NCBI GenBank assembly: GCA_025353765.1
Contig: JANXOD010000009.1
Coordinates: 106,092-170,091, forward strand
DNA: 64,000 bases
Source: Sphingobacteriales bacterium
GTDB lineage: Bacteria > Bacteroidota > Bacteroidia > Sphingobacteriales > Sphingobacteriaceae
Reading direction: 5' to 3'
Of this stretch, positions 24,388-60,239 are shown piece by piece. Both the position numbers and the translations under genes were made by a program. The first letter of the stretch is position 1; each line of letters begins with the position of its first letter. The notes beneath the pieces are model-generated. The model had not been told where the DNA came from. It saw only the letters and a list, made by a program, of their open reading frames with translations, and searched no databases.

Positions 24388-24492
24388 ATATAACAGATAA
24401 AAAATGCACAGGCATATCTTAGAAATGAGGTGCCAGATATAAAAATGTAGTGACATATGCAGAAAATGCACAGCCATGTACGGAAAATGCAG
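24388..24492. repeat. Tandem 21-bp repeat array with phased A-tracts (locus A)
   Basis: Five degenerate units of 20-21 bases run head to tail. They end in AAAAATGCA, AGAAATGA, AAAAATGTA, GAAAATGCA and GAAAATGCA, and several contain CAGATA(T)A just before the A-tract. The period puts an A-tract every two helical turns. It fills the gap between the barrel gene start and the di-heme gene end. It shares unit length and core words with the array at 43612-43749. Confidence 0.75.
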
Positions 24493-24513
24493 TAGTATAC
24501 TTGTTTAAAAAGA

Positions 24514-25899
24514 TTAAAGAGATCCAACGAAAGCAATCAAAGCATCTCTGTCTTTTTTTGATAAATTTTTTACTTTATTTTTTGAGGATAATCCTTCACC
24601 ATCATGCCATAAGATAGCCTCCATCAAACTTCTTGCTCTTCCATCATGTAAAAAATTAGTATGTCCGTTCACTTTTTGAGTTAAACCAATTCCCCATAGA
24701 GGAGGAGTACGCCATTCGGCGCCACTAGCTAAAAAATCTGGACGGTTATCTGCAAGCCCATCACCCATGTCATGTAATAACAGATCGGTGTATGGATGGA
24801 TAAGCTGGTTACTAAGCTGGGGGAAACTTACATTGACCGCTGTCCTCATATCTGCAATATGACATTTTGCACAACCAACAGATAGAAATAATGCTTTCCC
24901 TTGCATGACTAAAAGATCATTTACATTTCTTCTTGCCGGCACAGCCAAGGTCCTTATATAAAGGGATGTACTTTCCAGTAAGCTATCCGTTAATTCATAG
25001 TGGTAACCTGGTTTACTGTCAAATTGGGTTTGCCCGTCACTGCTTTCTTTTGGAAATATGGAATTGGTGATGCCCATATCACCATTATAGGCGGCAGCAA
25101 CTTGTTGCAGAATGGCTGGCTGGTTAGCTTTCCATCCGAAACGGCCCATTACTTTTTTCTGATGTACAACATCCCAAACGTAATTGGGAATACCACTAAT
25201 TCCATCTCCGTTTGCATCATTTGGATCGGCATTAGCTAAAACATCAGCATCACTAATAGCTTCGAGTAAACCGAGGCCAAATACCGGTGCAGCTACTCGC
25301 GGGGAAAGTAGTACACCTGCAGGATAGGAAATATAAGGATTATTAACTGTATAGGTTGGAAAACGAACACTGTAAACTGATCCGTCACCAAATGTAAATG
25401 ATTGTTCAGAATAGCTAATAGTAACATCTGCTTCTTTTGGAATATTTAAAACGCTGCGTGTTTGTATCTGGTCACCATATCCTGGCACAGGAACCGGATT
25501 GCCATGTTCACCCATACCTGGTAAACTAATACGAAACAGCATATTTGCAGCAGTTTCACCCATACCCGGTACTTTACCCCTGCCATCAGAAACATGACAG
25601 GAACCACAGGAAACATTATTGAAAATTGGTCCCAAGCCCGGATTTAAAGGAGCCGGAGCTGTAACAAATGTAGCTCCGAATTGCCCATCGCCAATTTCAT
25701 GTACACGCTCCAGGCTTTCTGGCAATGATTTAAACATATGAGAATAGGCGCCACTTCCCTGGTCGAAAGCAGTTTGCAGTCCGCCGCTTAACCATTCGCT
25801 ATGCGGATCAGGAACTCCCTGTTCAAATTTTGTACAGGCAGCCTGTATTACAACAATAAGTGTTATAATAATTAAGATCGCTTTAGTTGTTTTCCTCAT
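24514..25899 (-). CDS. Di-heme c-type lipoprotein (DUF1111, thiol-oxidoreductase-like)
   Basis: The 461-residue protein begins with a lipoprotein signal (residues 1-21, lipobox VIQAAC). Two heme c motifs are visible: CGSCH at about residue 97 and CAKCH at about 342. The late WRTPPLWGIGL and FLHDGRARSLMEAILWHDG blocks are typical of DUF1111 di-heme oxidoreductases related to MauG-type and cytochrome c peroxidases. It would sit in the periplasm on a membrane. It is the last gene of the porin-Rieske-imelysin-di-heme run, a pairing with imelysin seen in iron-regulated loci. The substrate is unknown. Confidence 0.9.
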   Translation of the reverse strand: MRKTTKAILIIITLIVVIQAACTKFEQGVPDPHSEWLSGGLQTAFDQGSGAYSHMFKSLPESLERVHEIGDGQFGATFVTAPAPLNPGLGPIFNNVSCGSCHVSDGRGKVPGMGETAANMLFRISLPGMGEHGNPVPVPGYGDQIQTRSVLNIPKEADVTISYSEQSFTFGDGSVYSVRFPTYTVNNPYISYPAGVLLSPRVAAPVFGLGLLEAISDADVLANADPNDANGDGISGIPNYVWDVVHQKKVMGRFGWKANQPAILQQVAAAYNGDMGITNSIFPKESSDGQTQFDSKPGYHYELTDSLLESTSLYIRTLAVPARRNVNDLLVMQGKALFLSVGCAKCHIADMRTAVNVSFPQLSNQLIHPYTDLLLHDMGDGLADNRPDFLASGAEWRTPPLWGIGLTQKVNGHTNFLHDGRARSLMEAILWHDGEGLSSKNKVKNLSKKDRDALIAFVGSL

Positions 25900-41191: not shown

Positions 41192-43141
41192 TTACTCCAC
41201 AATAACTTTTTGTGTGCTACTTTTACCGTTTGAAGTTACATTTACCATATAAATTCCTTTAGCATTTCCTGATAAATCTAGCTCATAAGCAGAGATATTA
41301 TCTTTCAAGTCTATTTTTTGAATTTTGCTTCCTGATAAATCGGATACTTCTATGGTTCCATTACTCAATTTTGTAGTAATGGTAAATTTACCAGTAGTTG
41401 GGTTTGGAGAGATAGTAACATCTTCTGAGACTAGACTTCCTGCTTCATTCCCTTTAGTATCTGTTGTAACACTAGTAGTTTTAACAGTCCTTGCTCCCGC
41501 AGGGTTAGTTAATGCTTCCACTAGTTTTTTAAGTTCATCAATTTGTTTTTGTTGTTCTTTAATTTGTTTTTGTTGTTCAGTTATTTGTCCTTGTTGTTCT
41601 TGCATACCTTTTACCAAAGGCACAACAAATTCAGCATAACGAATTCCGTAAAGTGCATTAGCGTTTGTTGGAACATCCACACCGCTAAAATCAAAGCCAC
41701 TTTCTTTCGCTGTTTTTTCTACTTCCTGGGCAATGAAACCACTCTCGCGGTGTTTGGCCGCATATTCATAACTGGCTTGTTTCATTTTCTGCAGTTGAGC
41801 ATCTTCTGTACGTGAAGTACTCTTGCGGCCTTTATCATAAAATGCATCTATCCCCGGTATATCTACTATATAAGTAACAGGTCTCAATTTATTGATAAAA
41901 TCAAGCCCTTTTACGTTTTCCATGACCTCTTTTTTAAAGCGGCCATCACTCAATTTTGTAAAGTTTACCGCTCCGCTTATCGAAGTAACTAAAGTATTAC
42001 CTATTCTTACTTTATTACTGGCATCTACGCTTGAGTTATACCCAATAGCTGTGGCGTTAGTTAAATCCTCTTTTGAAGAAATATCAGCACCATAGCCTAA
42101 GGCGGTATTAAAAGCTCCTCCAATATTACTTAGAAGTGCCTCAACACCTACGGCAGTATTACCACCCCCTGAAATGTTAGTGGAGAGTGCATTTACACCC
42201 AAAGCAGAATTAGAACCTCCCTTAATATTCCCATAAAGCGCACGATATCCTCCGGCAGTATTGTCATTTCCTGTGAGATTGGCGCTCAGTCCATCCTCGC
42301 CTAAGGCAGAATTATGCAATCCTGTGGTATTGGATAAGAGTGCAGCCACACCATCAGCTGTATTTCCACTTCCAGAGATATTGCTATGAAGTGACTGACT
42401 ACCGTTGGCGGTATTATAAGATCCTATAGTATTGCTTGAAAGTGCACCATGGCCATTACTGGTATTCCCATGGCCGGAGATATTGCTATTAAGAGAATAA
42501 GCACCAGCAGCTGTATTTTCAAACCCTTTAGTATTAAATTGAAGTGCATAAGAACCGCTAGCGGTGTTGCTAAATCCATCAATGTTGTTACTAAGTGCCT
42601 GAAATCCAGTAGCTGTATTAAAAGAACCTGAAATATTTGCACCCAATGCACTTGTACCACTAGCAGTATTTTCATGCCCTATGGTGTTGGAAGAAAGGGA
42701 TAAAAAGCCAGTAGCTGTATTATCATATCCATTGGTATTACTAGAGAGTGCACTATTGCCCATAGCTGTATTCCTATTGCTTATGTTTTTAGAAAGTGCA
42801 TTAAAACCGAAGGCTGAATTATTAAATCCTGCAATATTGCTAGAAAGTGCATTTCCACCAGTGGCAGTATTTTGAGTACCAGACATGTTGCTAGCAAGTG
42901 CCTTAAAGCCATTAGCAGTATTATCACTGCCAGTGGTGTTTGTATTAAGTGCCTTAAAACCAAATGCCGAATTATTAATACCACTTGAATTAATAAATAG
43001 AGCTCCAGCACCATAGGCGGTATTTTGAGCCATGGAAGGATTAAAAGACAGGAATAAGCCTGTTATTAGCAGAAGTTTTTTGTACACATCTTTTTTACTG
43101 AAAAGAGGGTTCATTGCTTTTGTATGTAAATTTTTCATCAT
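41192..43141 (-). CDS. Adhesin-like surface protein: 17-residue repeats, S74 chaperone domain, T9SS sorting domain
   Basis: The 649-residue protein has a signal peptide (about 1-39, ending PSMAQ). Nineteen near-perfect repeats of about 17 residues follow (residues 40-360), patterned N-T/S-A-x-G-x3-L-x2-N-x2-G-x2, like a left-handed head repeat of trimeric adhesins. A Peptidase_S74 intramolecular chaperone domain (SDGRFKKEVMENVKGLDFI) starts near 400. A Gln-rich coiled coil (about 510-540) and a C-terminal T9SS type A domain (VTISPNPTTGKFTI to VIVE) complete it. It should trimerise at the cell surface. One repeat (unit 5) is shortened to 16 residues. Confidence 0.88.
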   Translation of the reverse strand: MMKNLHTKAMNPLFSKKDVYKKLLLITGLFLSFNPSMAQNTAYGAGALFINSSGINNSAFGFKALNTNTTGSDNTANGFKALASNMSGTQNTATGGNALSSNIAGFNNSAFGFNALSKNISNRNTAMGNSALSSNTNGYDNTATGFLSLSSNTIGHENTASGTSALGANISGSFNTATGFQALSNNIDGFSNTASGSYALQFNTKGFENTAAGAYSLNSNISGHGNTSNGHGALSSNTIGSYNTANGSQSLHSNISGSGNTADGVAALLSNTTGLHNSALGEDGLSANLTGNDNTAGGYRALYGNIKGGSNSALGVNALSTNISGGGNTAVGVEALLSNIGGAFNTALGYGADISSKEDLTNATAIGYNSSVDASNKVRIGNTLVTSISGAVNFTKLSDGRFKKEVMENVKGLDFINKLRPVTYIVDIPGIDAFYDKGRKSTSRTEDAQLQKMKQASYEYAAKHRESGFIAQEVEKTAKESGFDFSGVDVPTNANALYGIRYAEFVVPLVKGMQEQQGQITEQQKQIKEQQKQIDELKKLVEALTNPAGARTVKTTSVTTDTKGNEAGSLVSEDVTISPNPTTGKFTITTKLSNGTIEVSDLSGSKIQKIDLKDNISAYELDLSGNAKGIYMVNVTSNGKSSTQKVIVE

Positions 43142-43373: not shown

Positions 43374-43611
43374 TCACTCCACAATAACTTTATGGTTACT
43401 GCTTTTACCATTTGAAGTTACATTTACCACATAAATTCCTTTAGCGTTTCCTGATAAATCCAGCTCGTAAGATGATTTATCCAATGTAAGGTCTATTTTT
43501 TTGATTTTGCTTTCTGATAAATTAAATACCTCTATGGTTCCATTATTTAATTTTGTAATGATGGTAAATTTACCGGTAGTGGGGTTATGGGAGATCCCAA
43601 CACCATCTGCT
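43374..43611 (-). pseudogene. Orphan T9SS sorting-domain remnant
   Basis: About 75 codons reproduce the C-terminal sorting domain of the protein at 41192-43141 (GISHNPTTGKFTIITKLNNG, SYELDLSGNAKGIYVVNVTS, NHKVIVE). DNA identity to 41192-41420 is evidently high on sight, with one in-frame codon insertion. No signal peptide, repeats or S74 domain precede it; instead the frame runs into a 21-bp repeat array. It is therefore a duplicated 3' end whose upstream part has been lost or replaced. A short leftward frame starting at 43688 still translates through the array. Confidence 0.8.
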
Positions 43612-43749
43612 GTGGACAGATACAGAAAATAGGCGGACAGATATAAAAAATAGACAGAGAGTAATAGAAAACACACCGAAAAATACATGGTCAGATGTAA
43701 AAAATAGATAGATAGCTATTAAAATGTGGTGCCGGAAACAAAAATGCAG
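43612..43749. repeat. Tandem 21-bp repeat array with phased A-tracts (locus B)
   Basis: Six 21-base units plus one 12-base truncated unit run from 43612 to 43749. The clearest two share GGACAGATA(T/C)A followed by A3-6 and end AATAG. Later units diverge but keep an A-tract near position 15 of 21. The array directly abuts the T9SS remnant and ends 75 bases before parC. Unit length and the AGATATAAAAA core match the array at 24388-24492. Confidence 0.8.
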
Positions 43750-43824
43750 CGACAGTTAGTTAAGATGGGACAAATAATATATCTATCACTTATATTTACC
43801 CCTTTAAAGAGTTTCAATTAAAGG

Positions 43825-46599
43825 ATGAGTGAAGAATTAGAAGATACGCATGGCGAAGAAAGTGTACATAACGTAACCACCTTATCTGGTTTGTATGAAA
43901 ACTGGTTTTTAGATTATGCATCTTATGTGATCTTAGACCGTGCTGTTCCGCATATTCACGATGGTTTAAAGCCGGTTCAACGCCGTATTTTGCATTCTCT
44001 TAAGGAAATGGACGATGGCCGTTTCAATAAAGCTGCCAACGTAATTGGTAATACCATGAAATACCATCCGCATGGTGATGCTTCTATTGGTGATGCTATG
44101 GTTCAGATTGGCCAAAAGAATTTATTAATTGAGACACAGGGAAACTGGGGCGATCCGATAACCGGAGACTCTGCCGCAGCACCCCGTTATATCGAAGCAA
44201 GACTTTCAAAATTTGCTCTTGAAGTGGTGTTTAATCCAGATACGACCGAATGGCAATCCAGTTATGATGGGCGTAATAAAGAGCCTGTTACTTTGCCTGT
44301 AAAATTCCCTCTTTTACTTGCCCAGGGAGCTGATGGTATTGCAGTTGGTTTGGCCACTAAAATTATGCCTCACAATTTTGTGGAACTCATTGATGCATCC
44401 ATCGAAGTGTTAAAAGGAAACCGACCGAATATGCTTCCTGATTTTCAAATGGGAGGGATGGCCGATTTTACCAATTATAATGAAGGTCAGCGTGGCGGTA
44501 AAATACGGGTGAGGGCAAAAATTGTAGAACGGGATAAGAAAACGCTTGCCATTACAGAAATACCTTATACTACTACAACCGGAGGTTTAATTGACAGTGT
44601 GATATCTGCTAATGATAAAGGTAAGATTAAGATCAAAAAGATTGAGGATAATACCGCTAAAAACGTAGAGATTATGATCCATCTGGCACCCGGTATTTCT
44701 CCGGATGTGACCATAGATGCACTGTATGCCTTTACAGATTGTGAAGTATCCATCTCACCAAACACTTGTATTATCAAAGGCGATAAGCCTTATTTTATGA
44801 GTGTGAATGATATTTTGGTGGAGAGTACACAGCATACCAAAAACTTATTAAAAGAAGAGCTGGAAATAAAACTGGCCGAATTAAAAGAGAAAATATTCTT
44901 TAGCTCGCTCTTGAAAATTTTCATCCAGGAAGGGATGTATAAAAACCCGGAATATGAAAGCTCTGGAAATTTAGAAAATGTAGTGGAAGTTTTAAATAAA
45001 CTTTTTGAACCTTTCTTTTCTCAGTTTTACAGAGAAATTCTACCTGAAGATTATAAAAAACTCATTGATAAACCCATGAGCAGCATCACCCGGTTTGATG
45101 TTAAAAAATCGGATGAGCAAATGAAATCTCTTGAAAATGATATTAAAGAGGTTAATAAACATTTAAAGCATCTTACAGATTATGCGATTGCCTGGTTTGA
45201 AAAATTAAAGCATAAATACGGAGCAGGCAGAGAGCGCAAAACAGAAATCCGCTTATTTGATAGGGTAGAGGCTTCTAAAGTAGCGTTGGCCAATGTGAAG
45301 CTATATATGAACCGTGAAGATGGCTTTATTGGTACAGGTTTACGTAAAGATGAATTTGTTTGTGATTGTTCTGATCTGGATGAGATTATTGTGTTCCGCG
45401 AAGACGGGAAATTTACGGTTTCTAAAGTGGCCGAGAAAACATTTGTAGGTAAAGGAATTATTCATGCACAGGTTTTTAAAAAGAATGATGAGCGTACAGT
45501 TTATAATTTAATTTATCGTGATGGTGAAAGCGGTACATCTTATATGAAACGTTTTTCTGTATTGGGCGTTACCCGCGATAAGGAATATGATTTAACAAAA
45601 GGTGGCAAAGGTTCTAAAGTGCTGTATTTTTCACCTAATCCTAACGGTGAAGCAGAAATCGTAAATGTGCAGTTAAAGCCGCATTCTAAACTGAAAAAGC
45701 TGCAATTTGATTTAGATTTTGCCGATCAGGTTATTAAAGGCCGCAGTTCTATGGGAAATATTGTCAGCAAGTATCCCATTAAAAAAGTGGTTTTAAAGAG
45801 TAAAGGTATTTCTACATTATCCGGCCGTAAAATTTGGTTTGATGATATTTTAAAACGCTTAAATGTAGATGGCCGCGGAAAATATTTGGGTGAGTTTGAT
45901 GGCGATGATAAAATACTGACGGTTAACAGGGATGGCATTTACGAGTTAAGCAGTTTTGAACTAAGCAATCATTTCGATGATCATTTGCTCATCATCGAAA
46001 AGTATAATCCCGAAAAAGTGTTTGCTGTGATCTATCTGGATGGCAAATCTAAAAATCAGTATTTAAAGCGCTTTACTTTCGAGAATTCATCCATTGGGAA
46101 AAAGACTACAATCATCAGTGAAGAAAATGGTTCTAAACTGATCCTGATTTCAGGCGCTCAAAACCCTAAAATCCAAATGGAGCAGTTAAAAGGAAAAGGG
46201 CAGGTTGCTGAAGTGGTGGAACTTAATTTAACTGAAGCCATTGATGTAAAAGGGATGAAAGCGTTGGGAAATCGCTTAAGTCAGCATGAGGTGAAAAAAA
46301 TTGAATTAATTGCAGAGGCAGAAGAGCCGGAGGAAATCCCTGAAGTAAGCCCTGGAATTGTTCCTGAAGTTTATACAGAATCTGATGAGCCTGTTCAGTA
46401 TGGGGCCATTCCTATATCATCTTCAGAAGGAGATATTACTGAATCTGTAGAAGAAGAATCCGAAGAAAATGAAAAAGGACTGATTGAAGAAACGATTGAT
46501 GAGGAGGAAGAAATAAAGCCTGCTAAAATAATTGATTTTGAAATCACTAACCCAGATGATGTAGATATAGACGATAAAGGGCAATTGGGATTATTCTAA
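43825..46599 (+). CDS. parC: DNA topoisomerase IV subunit A
   Basis: The 924-residue subunit breaks and rejoins DNA. The winged-helix region has DGLKPVQRRILHSLKEMDDG near residues 46-65, and the catalytic Tyr122 lies in AAAPRYIEARLSK. The tower and coiled-coil regions follow. The C-terminal beta-pinwheel (from about 520) has degenerate blade motifs and no GyrA box (QRRGGKG), which supports ParC over GyrA. An acidic tail rich in Glu closes the protein. Its partner parE lies 6 kb upstream on the same strand. Confidence 0.93.
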   Translation: MSEELEDTHGEESVHNVTTLSGLYENWFLDYASYVILDRAVPHIHDGLKPVQRRILHSLKEMDDGRFNKAANVIGNTMKYHPHGDASIGDAMVQIGQKNLLIETQGNWGDPITGDSAAAPRYIEARLSKFALEVVFNPDTTEWQSSYDGRNKEPVTLPVKFPLLLAQGADGIAVGLATKIMPHNFVELIDASIEVLKGNRPNMLPDFQMGGMADFTNYNEGQRGGKIRVRAKIVERDKKTLAITEIPYTTTTGGLIDSVISANDKGKIKIKKIEDNTAKNVEIMIHLAPGISPDVTIDALYAFTDCEVSISPNTCIIKGDKPYFMSVNDILVESTQHTKNLLKEELEIKLAELKEKIFFSSLLKIFIQEGMYKNPEYESSGNLENVVEVLNKLFEPFFSQFYREILPEDYKKLIDKPMSSITRFDVKKSDEQMKSLENDIKEVNKHLKHLTDYAIAWFEKLKHKYGAGRERKTEIRLFDRVEASKVALANVKLYMNREDGFIGTGLRKDEFVCDCSDLDEIIVFREDGKFTVSKVAEKTFVGKGIIHAQVFKKNDERTVYNLIYRDGESGTSYMKRFSVLGVTRDKEYDLTKGGKGSKVLYFSPNPNGEAEIVNVQLKPHSKLKKLQFDLDFADQVIKGRSSMGNIVSKYPIKKVVLKSKGISTLSGRKIWFDDILKRLNVDGRGKYLGEFDGDDKILTVNRDGIYELSSFELSNHFDDHLLIIEKYNPEKVFAVIYLDGKSKNQYLKRFTFENSSIGKKTTIISEENGSKLILISGAQNPKIQMEQLKGKGQVAEVVELNLTEAIDVKGMKALGNRLSQHEVKKIELIAEAEEPEEIPEVSPGIVPEVYTESDEPVQYGAIPISSSEGDITESVEEESEENEKGLIEETIDEEEEIKPAKIIDFEITNPDDVDIDDKGQLGLF

Positions 46600-59737: not shown

Positions 59738-59932
59738 TTGTTTAATAGTTATTTAAGAAACTAATCGGTTGCAAACATATGTGCAACTATTTGGTTTCGC
59801 AAATTGTTTTATAATTATTTTTCTTTGCCTTAAATTTTTGTTTAAAATGACTAAAGAGATTAAGGTGTTATCTTTGAATTGAGCTCCAAGTAACAGCGGG
59901 AGCTTTATTTATATGACGAGTTGAGAGTTTTA

Positions 59933-60142
59933 CTGTCAAGCGAATATAAAAAAGATGCAACGCTGATACTTTTACTGTCAAGCGAATATAAAAAAGATAC
60001 AACGTTGATACTTTTAGATGCAAGCGAGTATAAAAAAGATGCAACGTTGATACTTTTACACTCAAGCGAATATAAAAAAGATGTAACGTTGATACTTTTA
60101 GATGCAAGCGAATATAAAAAAGATGCTCCGTTGCATCTTTTT
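59933..60142. repeat. Tandem 42-bp repeat array (five units, locus C)
   Basis: Units start at 59933, 59975, 60017, 60059 and 60101. Each has the shape (N)4CAAGCGAATATAAAAAAGAT, then GCAACGTTGATACTTTTA. Identity between units is above 80 percent by eye, with the first four bases (CTGT, CTGT, GATG, CACT, GATG) the most variable part. Each unit has an A-tract and a T-tract whose centres are 21 bases apart, so tracts recur every two helical turns. The last unit ends differently and forms a hairpin. Confidence 0.93.
60117..60142 (-). terminator. Hairpin at the end of the 42-bp array, possible terminator
   Basis: AAAAAGATGC / GCATCTTTTT pair over 10 bases around a TCCGTT loop. Both strands carry a T-run next to a GC-containing stem. 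It lies about 98 bases after the M1 peptidase stop on the minus strand and could end that transcript. Confidence 0.5.
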
Positions 60143-60239
60143 ATATCAAATTAGTTAGGAAGCGATATTGATAAAAAATGCAGATCCATTGTAAAAGCAA
60201 ATACAAGCCATTGAATTCTGCTGCTATTTCCTCTTTATA

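What the first reader, a model, noticed from the sequence alone, without database searches (positions are those of the whole stretch)
43612..43749. Locus B: second copy of the 21-bp repeat family, fused to a T9SS remnant
Seen: six 21-bp units plus a 12-bp one share the AGATATAAAAA core and A-tract phase with locus A, 19 kb away. The array has replaced the body of a duplicated surface-protein gene, leaving only its sorting domain. Inference: the repeats are a dispersed, expanding family that inserts in or grows at intergenic and decayed surface genes. I know no named element with this layout.
Basis: partly seen in the sequence, partly recalled or inferred. Interest (0 to 1): 0.72.

Follow-up and report, generated by a model that had tools for sequence, protein, structure and literature searches.

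The report
Scattered families of 21-letter DNA repeats
The stretch between a clipped surface-protein gene and a DNA-untangling gene is one of 26 arrays found between the genes of one bacterium, built on a repeat of 21 letters but in several unrelated sequences, some with relatives at distant sites, so something likely fixes the repeat's length rather than its letters.

Summary
Locus B is real: period-21 identity 0.53, reached by 0 of 1000 dinucleotide shuffles. It aligns with locus A and with a third array on contig C24 (0 of 300 shuffles each); of 16 other arrays one is marginal and 15 are not significant. In 1.26 Mb (45%) of this 2.83-Mb Daejeonella-like genome I catalogued 25 intergenic arrays built on 21 bp (one, L212, fits 43 better), plus one found by pattern. 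At z>=5, 15 of 26 fall into seven unrelated sequence families with members at separate sites. One family has hits at four places here and none in 19 congeners. No array lies upstream of parC in 19 congeners. The arrays show no overall codon signal, curvature, heptamer substructure or shared ends; T9SS tails occur in 2 of 36 scanned flanking ORFs. At B the array begins within about 5 bp of where an orphan T9SS tail stops matching its paralogues. Best reading: length-locked intergenic minisatellites; growth, copying between sites and the ruler are inferred. Closest known kinds: BrickBuilt and heptamer repeats. New variant of a known kind.

The parts
43612..43757 (.). Array B: tandem repeat on a 21-bp unit, consensus near GACAGATATAAAAAATAGNNN (four 21-bp, one 12-bp, two 20-bp units, then a decayed edge)
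   Evidence: relation to A and to the C24 array:
43374..43612 (-). Orphan T9SS sorting tail (Por_Secre_tail); the 104-aa frame 43374-43688 opens inside the array
   Evidence: E 8.6e-10; 88% identical to a C37 gene, 82% to the adjacent gene; match ends at 43609-43612 in local alignments
41192..43141 (-). Adjacent intact surface protein with Peptidase_S74 and T9SS tail, paralogue of the orphan tail
43790..43799 (+). TTATATTTAC, putative parC promoter core just downstream of the array; present upstream of parC in 17 of 19 congeners
   Evidence: that it is a promoter is recalled consensus, not tested
43825..46599 (+). Topoisomerase IV subunit A (parC)
24391..24494 (.). Array A, same sequence family as B, between a di-haem oxidoreductase (putative peroxidase) gene and an outer-membrane beta-barrel gene
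59915..60180 (.). Array C, 42-bp (2 x 21) units, a different sequence family with hits at three further places in this genome

Best explanation
Array B is one member of a three-locus sequence family within a set of intergenic minisatellites that share a 21-bp unit length but not a sequence; the arrays likely grow by duplication of whole units and were likely copied now and then to other intergenic sites, one such copy likely having landed at B together with loss of the body of a T9SS surface gene. Shown: the array, its kin at A and C24, at least seven unrelated families, family members at distant sites, higher-order blocks of 42, 63, 84 and 126 bp, absence of an array at parC in congeners, lack of an overall codon-phase, curvature or heptamer signal. 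Inferred: growth by slippage or unequal exchange in whole-unit steps; transfer between sites by an unidentified recombination or mobilisation route; a length ruler, most simply two turns of B-DNA (2 x 10.5 bp) during strand realignment; no sequence-specific function, the arrays being tolerated because they sit between genes.
For: Periodicity of B. Two later samples of the same genome, taken after the 21-bp idea arose, gave 9, 7, 5 hits and 7, 7, 6 hits at periods 21, 42, 63, against at most 2 and at most 4 at any other period from 10 to 69. TRF arrays (score >=80, >=50 bp, outside long ORFs) whose period is a multiple of 21: 12 of 18 in the window and the first two samples (8 of 9, then 4 of 9; one of the 12, L170, reads as a coding lipoprotein), 1 of 13 in congeners, 3 of 18 in other Sphingobacteriaceae (Fisher p 0.0002; the third sample was not in this tally). 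Families: 8 pairs at z>=5 and 0 of 100 shuffles among 351 pairs, giving seven families; control with shuffled arrays 1 of 351 at z>=5. The C family: 12 pattern hits at four places (C27, C35, C20; a single three-mismatch hit on C13), none in 19 congeners, reversed-pattern control 0. No overall codon signal: Fisher p 0.32 over 17 arrays. No array upstream of parC in 19 congeners, and none on period 21 or 42 beside the best matches, in 13 congeners, of the gene next to array C.
Against: The ruler is inferred from length alone: predicted curvature at 10.5 bp is not raised (mean z -0.15 +- 0.23 over 19 arrays), and congeners carry 7-, 11-, 14- and 22-bp arrays, so helical pitch does not explain the family at large. 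A and B contain 19- or 20-bp and 12-bp steps, and L212 fits period 43 (0.52) better than 21 (0.44) or 42 (0.40). In the second sample only 4 of 9 TRF arrays are multiples of 21; two of the other five, at periods 43 and 124, are catalogued arrays with indels. 11 of 26 arrays have no relative at z>=5 in the sample. No shared ends or target duplications were found that would show how copies moved. Several arrays fold more stably than shuffles (L223a, L223b, L184, L212, C minus strand), so an RNA role for some is not excluded. Three of 17 arrays (L167, L174, L207) have a single-array codon-phase p just under 0.05, and L167 has an open frame with syn/non 1.40.
Confidence: 0.58

Rival explanations
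1. Ordinary slippage-born minisatellite at a dead surface gene; the likeness to other arrays is AT-rich chance.
For: The catalogued arrays lie between genes; B is diverged and contains odd-length steps. No function could be shown.
Against: A-B and B-C24 alignments are reached by 0 of 300 shuffles; one unit length stands out in three samples of the genome, which slippage with free unit length does not predict.
Confidence: 0.15
2. The arrays are or were coding: 21 bp is seven codons, and B's frame runs into the T9SS tail as a 104-aa protein.
For: B's minus frame is open into the tail; L167 has syn/non 1.40 in one open frame; 21-bp periodic coding sequence lies nearby in a real gene (41524-41599); 12 of 17 arrays have at least one frame without stops, though that is expected of short repeats.
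Against: No overall codon-phase excess over 17 arrays (Fisher p 0.32); L223b has at least 5 stops in every frame and L184 at least 2; other multiples of three are not in similar excess.
Confidence: 0.1
3. MITE-like mobile element with a tandem-repeat interior, like BrickBuilt of P. gingivalis, moved by a transposase in trans.
For: Intergenic, not seen in congeners, multi-copy, 21 versus 23 bp (for BrickBuilt); arrays C and L329 share about 20 bp beyond the repeat body.
Against: No common leader, tail or inverted ends in an all-against-all of flanks of 19 arrays (five stray matches of 20-26 bp); families differ in sequence.
Confidence: 0.15
4. Helically phased regulatory or nucleoid sites (bent DNA upstream of parC and elsewhere).
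For: 21 bp is two helical turns; B abuts the putative parC promoter.
Against: Curvature score not raised; lag 10-11 identity is not raised; neighbours are convergent 8, divergent 6, tandem 11 of 25, against 57, 77, 181 of 315 for all gaps of 150 bp or more.
Confidence: 0.1

Closest known systems
BrickBuilt minisatellite-MITE of Porphyromonas gingivalis (PMC4596501; outline and abstract read)
   Same: Bacteroidota; intergenic; short unit (23 nt) without spacers; 19 copies in strain ATCC 33277; limited host range
   Different: One sequence with leader and tail bearing inverted ends; here at least seven unrelated families, a 21-bp unit and no shared ends found
Intergenic heptamer direct repeats (TAACTGA in Beggiatoaceae, Cyanobacteria, Bacteroidetes; PMC4679880, passages read; it also reports Mrazek et al. 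2007 on heptamers and a polymerase-footprint idea for unit length)
   Same: Intergenic, dispersed, fixed unit length, sporadic in Bacteroidetes; a unit-length ruler has been proposed
   Different: Unit 7 with one sequence; here unit 21 with many sequences and no 7-bp substructure
CRISPR arrays (features recalled)
   Same: Tandem repeats between genes
   Different: No constant repeat with unique spacers; contiguous 21-bp units

Membership tests
BrickBuilt MITE | 23-nt tandem unit of one sequence | tested here: not met
   Unit 21; seven unrelated families
BrickBuilt MITE | Leader and tail with small inverted-repeat ends common to the copies | tested here: not met
   Flank all-against-all of 19 of 26 arrays shows none; C and L329 share about 20 bp on one side
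BrickBuilt MITE | Bidirectional promoter activity | not testable with these tools
   Needs reporter assays
Heptamer repeats (STRR, TAACTGA type) | 7-bp period | tested here: not met
   Identity at lag 7: mean z 0.11 +- 0.28 over 19 arrays
Coding heptapeptide repeats | Substitutions concentrated at third codon positions in an open frame | tested here: not met
   17 arrays, Fisher p 0.32; three single arrays just under 0.05; L167 the best candidate exception
Phased bent DNA | Raised curvature at the helical repeat | tested here: not met
   Roll-based score, mean z -0.15 +- 0.23 over 19 arrays (roll values recalled)
Retron or DGR product | Reverse transcriptase in the genome | tested here: not met
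   No PF00078 match in the draft genome G000
T9SS cargo | C-terminal Por_Secre_tail on a secreted passenger | tested here: inconclusive
   Tail present; no passenger, frame opens in the array

The most novel reading that the evidence does not exclude
This species carries a genome-wide array system of roughly 56 intergenic arrays in which an unknown process measures 21 bp, multiplies whatever local sequence it starts from, and copies arrays to new intergenic sites in either orientation: a repeat class defined by length, not by sequence.
Probability: 0.33. Interest if true: 0.75.

Novelty: new variant of a known kind. Interest (0 to 1): 0.5.

Why it matters
Bacterial repeat families are usually defined by one sequence (recalled). 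A genome whose intergenic arrays share unit length across unrelated sequences points to a mutational or recombinational ruler, and makes the question of what sets repeat unit length in bacteria testable, in a genome with MutS and without a detected reverse transcriptase. It would also give typing loci if copy number varies, and shows how a surface gene can be reduced to its sorting tag.

Tried and rejected
Coding origin, bent DNA, heptamer and 10-11-bp substructure (one search shows a weak negative correlation of A/T content at lags 10-12, z about -2), RNA families at B (none), plasmid kin (no match), reverse transcription, missing MutS (present), MITE ends, clustering at T9SS genes. A sequence-only profile (R1) found in this genome, below E 0.08, only the four arrays it was built from. 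PWM comparison ranked the families only weakly; local alignment resolved them. A hidden continuum of decayed arrays in other gaps could not be shown: my ORF mask leaves coding scraps, and lag 21 is raised in relatives too. Seen and dropped from the catalogue: L176 and L170 (look coding), L224 5238-5429 and L321 (heptamers), the non-21 arrays of L210, and weaker hits at 21, 42, 63 or 84 bp below about 0.58 that did not look like arrays (for example in L166, L177, L211, L217, L221, L320, L328).

Full report
Setting. The window is G000:C27:106092-170091 of a 2.83-Mb, 44-contig genome.

The observation. Array B shows identity 0.53 at offset 21; none of 1000 dinucleotide shuffles reaches this. Read unit by unit it is 21, 21, 21, 12, 21, 20, 20. 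In a sliding scan of the window, B and A are the second and third best places at period 21; the best is a coding coiled-coil stalk at 41484. A alone is weaker: 4 of 1000 at period 21, 22 of 1000 over all periods.

The sorting tail. 43374-43612 (-) encodes Por_Secre_tail. The genome has 50 matches to this family, 45 over the cut-off; this one has the shortest open frame (113 aa) apart from two at contig starts. Nearest DNA is a 794-aa T9SS protein on C37 (88% over 213 bp), then the adjacent gene (82%). The match ends at 43612 and 43609 in local alignments. In a three-way comparison the tail has 8 synonymous and 6 nonsynonymous private codons, no more relaxed than its intact paralogues (6/6 and 6/4), so decay of the tail itself is not shown; what is shown is that no body precedes it.

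Kinship of arrays. B aligns with A (54; 0 of 300 shuffles) and with the C24 array (70; 0 of 300); with L171a only marginally (22 of 300 dinucleotide shuffles, 44 of 300 unit shuffles); with the remaining 15 of 18 not significantly (L171b the closest, 38 and 24 of 300). The pattern search that led to the C24 and C6 arrays is weak in itself: 20 hits against 22 in the reversed control.

The wider set. I sampled the genome in three spaced sets of 400 kb besides the window. Arrays outside long ORFs on 21 bp: 10 in window plus set one, 8 in set two, 7 in set three, 25 in 1.264 Mb, plus C24 found by pattern. One of the 25, L212, fits period 43 better. Scaled up this is about 56 per genome (my extrapolation). 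One search adds a place on C20 with four hits 42 bp apart and a single hit on C13, neither read. The catalogue was made by threshold and by reading; what was dropped is listed under Tried and rejected. In 700 kb of eight congeners the clustered arrays with best period 21, 42 or 63 are L242, made of heptamers, and a weak L236; in 82 kb of four Daejeonella records two period-21 hits are heptamers too. Pedobacter kyungheensis has three 21- or 42-bp arrays in what I read: L057, L273, L280.

Families. Among 26 arrays plus one outgroup (351 pairs), 8 pairs pass z>=5 with 0 of 100 shuffles: {A,B,C24}, {C,L329}, {L207,L336}, {L173,L215}, {L171b,L223a}, {L184,L323}, {L223b,L326}; L167-L323 has z 7.5 but 1 of 100. 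Shuffled control: 1 of 351. L173 and L215 lie on one contig (C20) in opposite orientation. Printed alignments of five pairs show homology confined to the arrays, save about 20 bp beside C. With 45% of the genome in hand, some singletons may have unseen partners (inference).

Absence in relatives. A period scan of up to 600 bp upstream of parC finds no array in 19 congeners (17 with 600 bp, one with 525, one with 126), while the same scan finds B. Best matches of the gene beside array C in 13 congeners show no 21- or 42-bp array nearby (one has a period-27 hit), and one match of the gene beside A shows none. The C-family pattern has no hit in 19 congeners. The R1 profile has one hit in one congener, not a periodic array.

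What they are not. Codon phase p 0.32 over 17 arrays, with L167, L174 and L207 singly just under 0.05; curvature mean z -0.15; identity at lags 7, 14, 10, 11 not raised; no shared flanks among 19 arrays; no reverse transcriptase found; MutS present; no Rfam match at B. Neighbouring genes: 36 ORFs at 19 arrays scanned, T9SS tail in two; the seven arrays of set three were not scanned. Orientation of neighbours is close to background with a mild convergent excess, 8 of 25 against 57 of 315. Median share of the gap filled by the array is 0.66 (25 arrays).

Mechanism. Blocks of 42, 63, 84 and 126 bp indicate growth in whole-unit steps. Over 19 arrays, 283 of 317 scored windows sit exactly on 21 or 42; the exceptions lie in L212, L174, L223b, A and B. 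Family members at separate sites imply copying between sites; how is unknown. The ruler is inferred; two helical turns is the simplest candidate, not a tested one.

Literature. Nine searches of the open library showed, in listings that are partly capped, no paper on 21-bp intergenic arrays in this group; most subscription papers are not covered. BrickBuilt: outline and abstract. TAACTGA repeats: 12 of 22 passages.

Noticed in passing
59915-60180 (array C); C35:4823-4938; C20:264240-264397; C13:116049-116080: A 42-bp array family with hits at four places of this genome (the C13 one a single hit) and none in 19 congeners; C and the C35 copy share about 20 bp beyond the repeats.
   Followed up: partly
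41484-41609: 21-bp periodic coding sequence: coiled-coil stalk (EQQKQIK-like) of the S74/T9SS surface protein.
   Followed up: partly
L224 5309-5372; L321 5556-5730: CTAACTG heptamer arrays in this genome, close to the published TAACTGA direct repeats.
   Followed up: no
L191 12182-12235; L198 7893-8093; L242 16871-17023; L087 3808-3860; L081 2974-3026; L103 3847-3900: Intergenic 11- or 22-bp arrays in other Daejeonella-genus genomes, Pedobacter and Desertivirga; L081 and L087 look alike, the others differ.
   Followed up: no
L057 9463-9651; L273 1-200; L280 9776-9994: Pedobacter kyungheensis has 21/42-bp intergenic arrays too, one of them upstream of parC.
   Followed up: partly
L167 5416-5709: Array with a 14-residue open frame (IIKFYGVLPQLRNG) and syn/non 1.40; may be a translated exception beside a T9SS subtilase gene.
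   Followed up: partly
L223 7005-7400 and 18745-19100; window 59926-60135 minus strand; L184 14994-15312; L212 18130-18451: These arrays (first 210 bp folded) are more stable as RNA than 30 dinucleotide shuffles, z about -3.5 to -3.9 on at least one strand.
   Followed up: no
24501-24523 and 59838-59860: 23-bp 91% match between the right flank of array A and the left flank of array C; may be promoter-like AT-rich chance.
   Followed up: no
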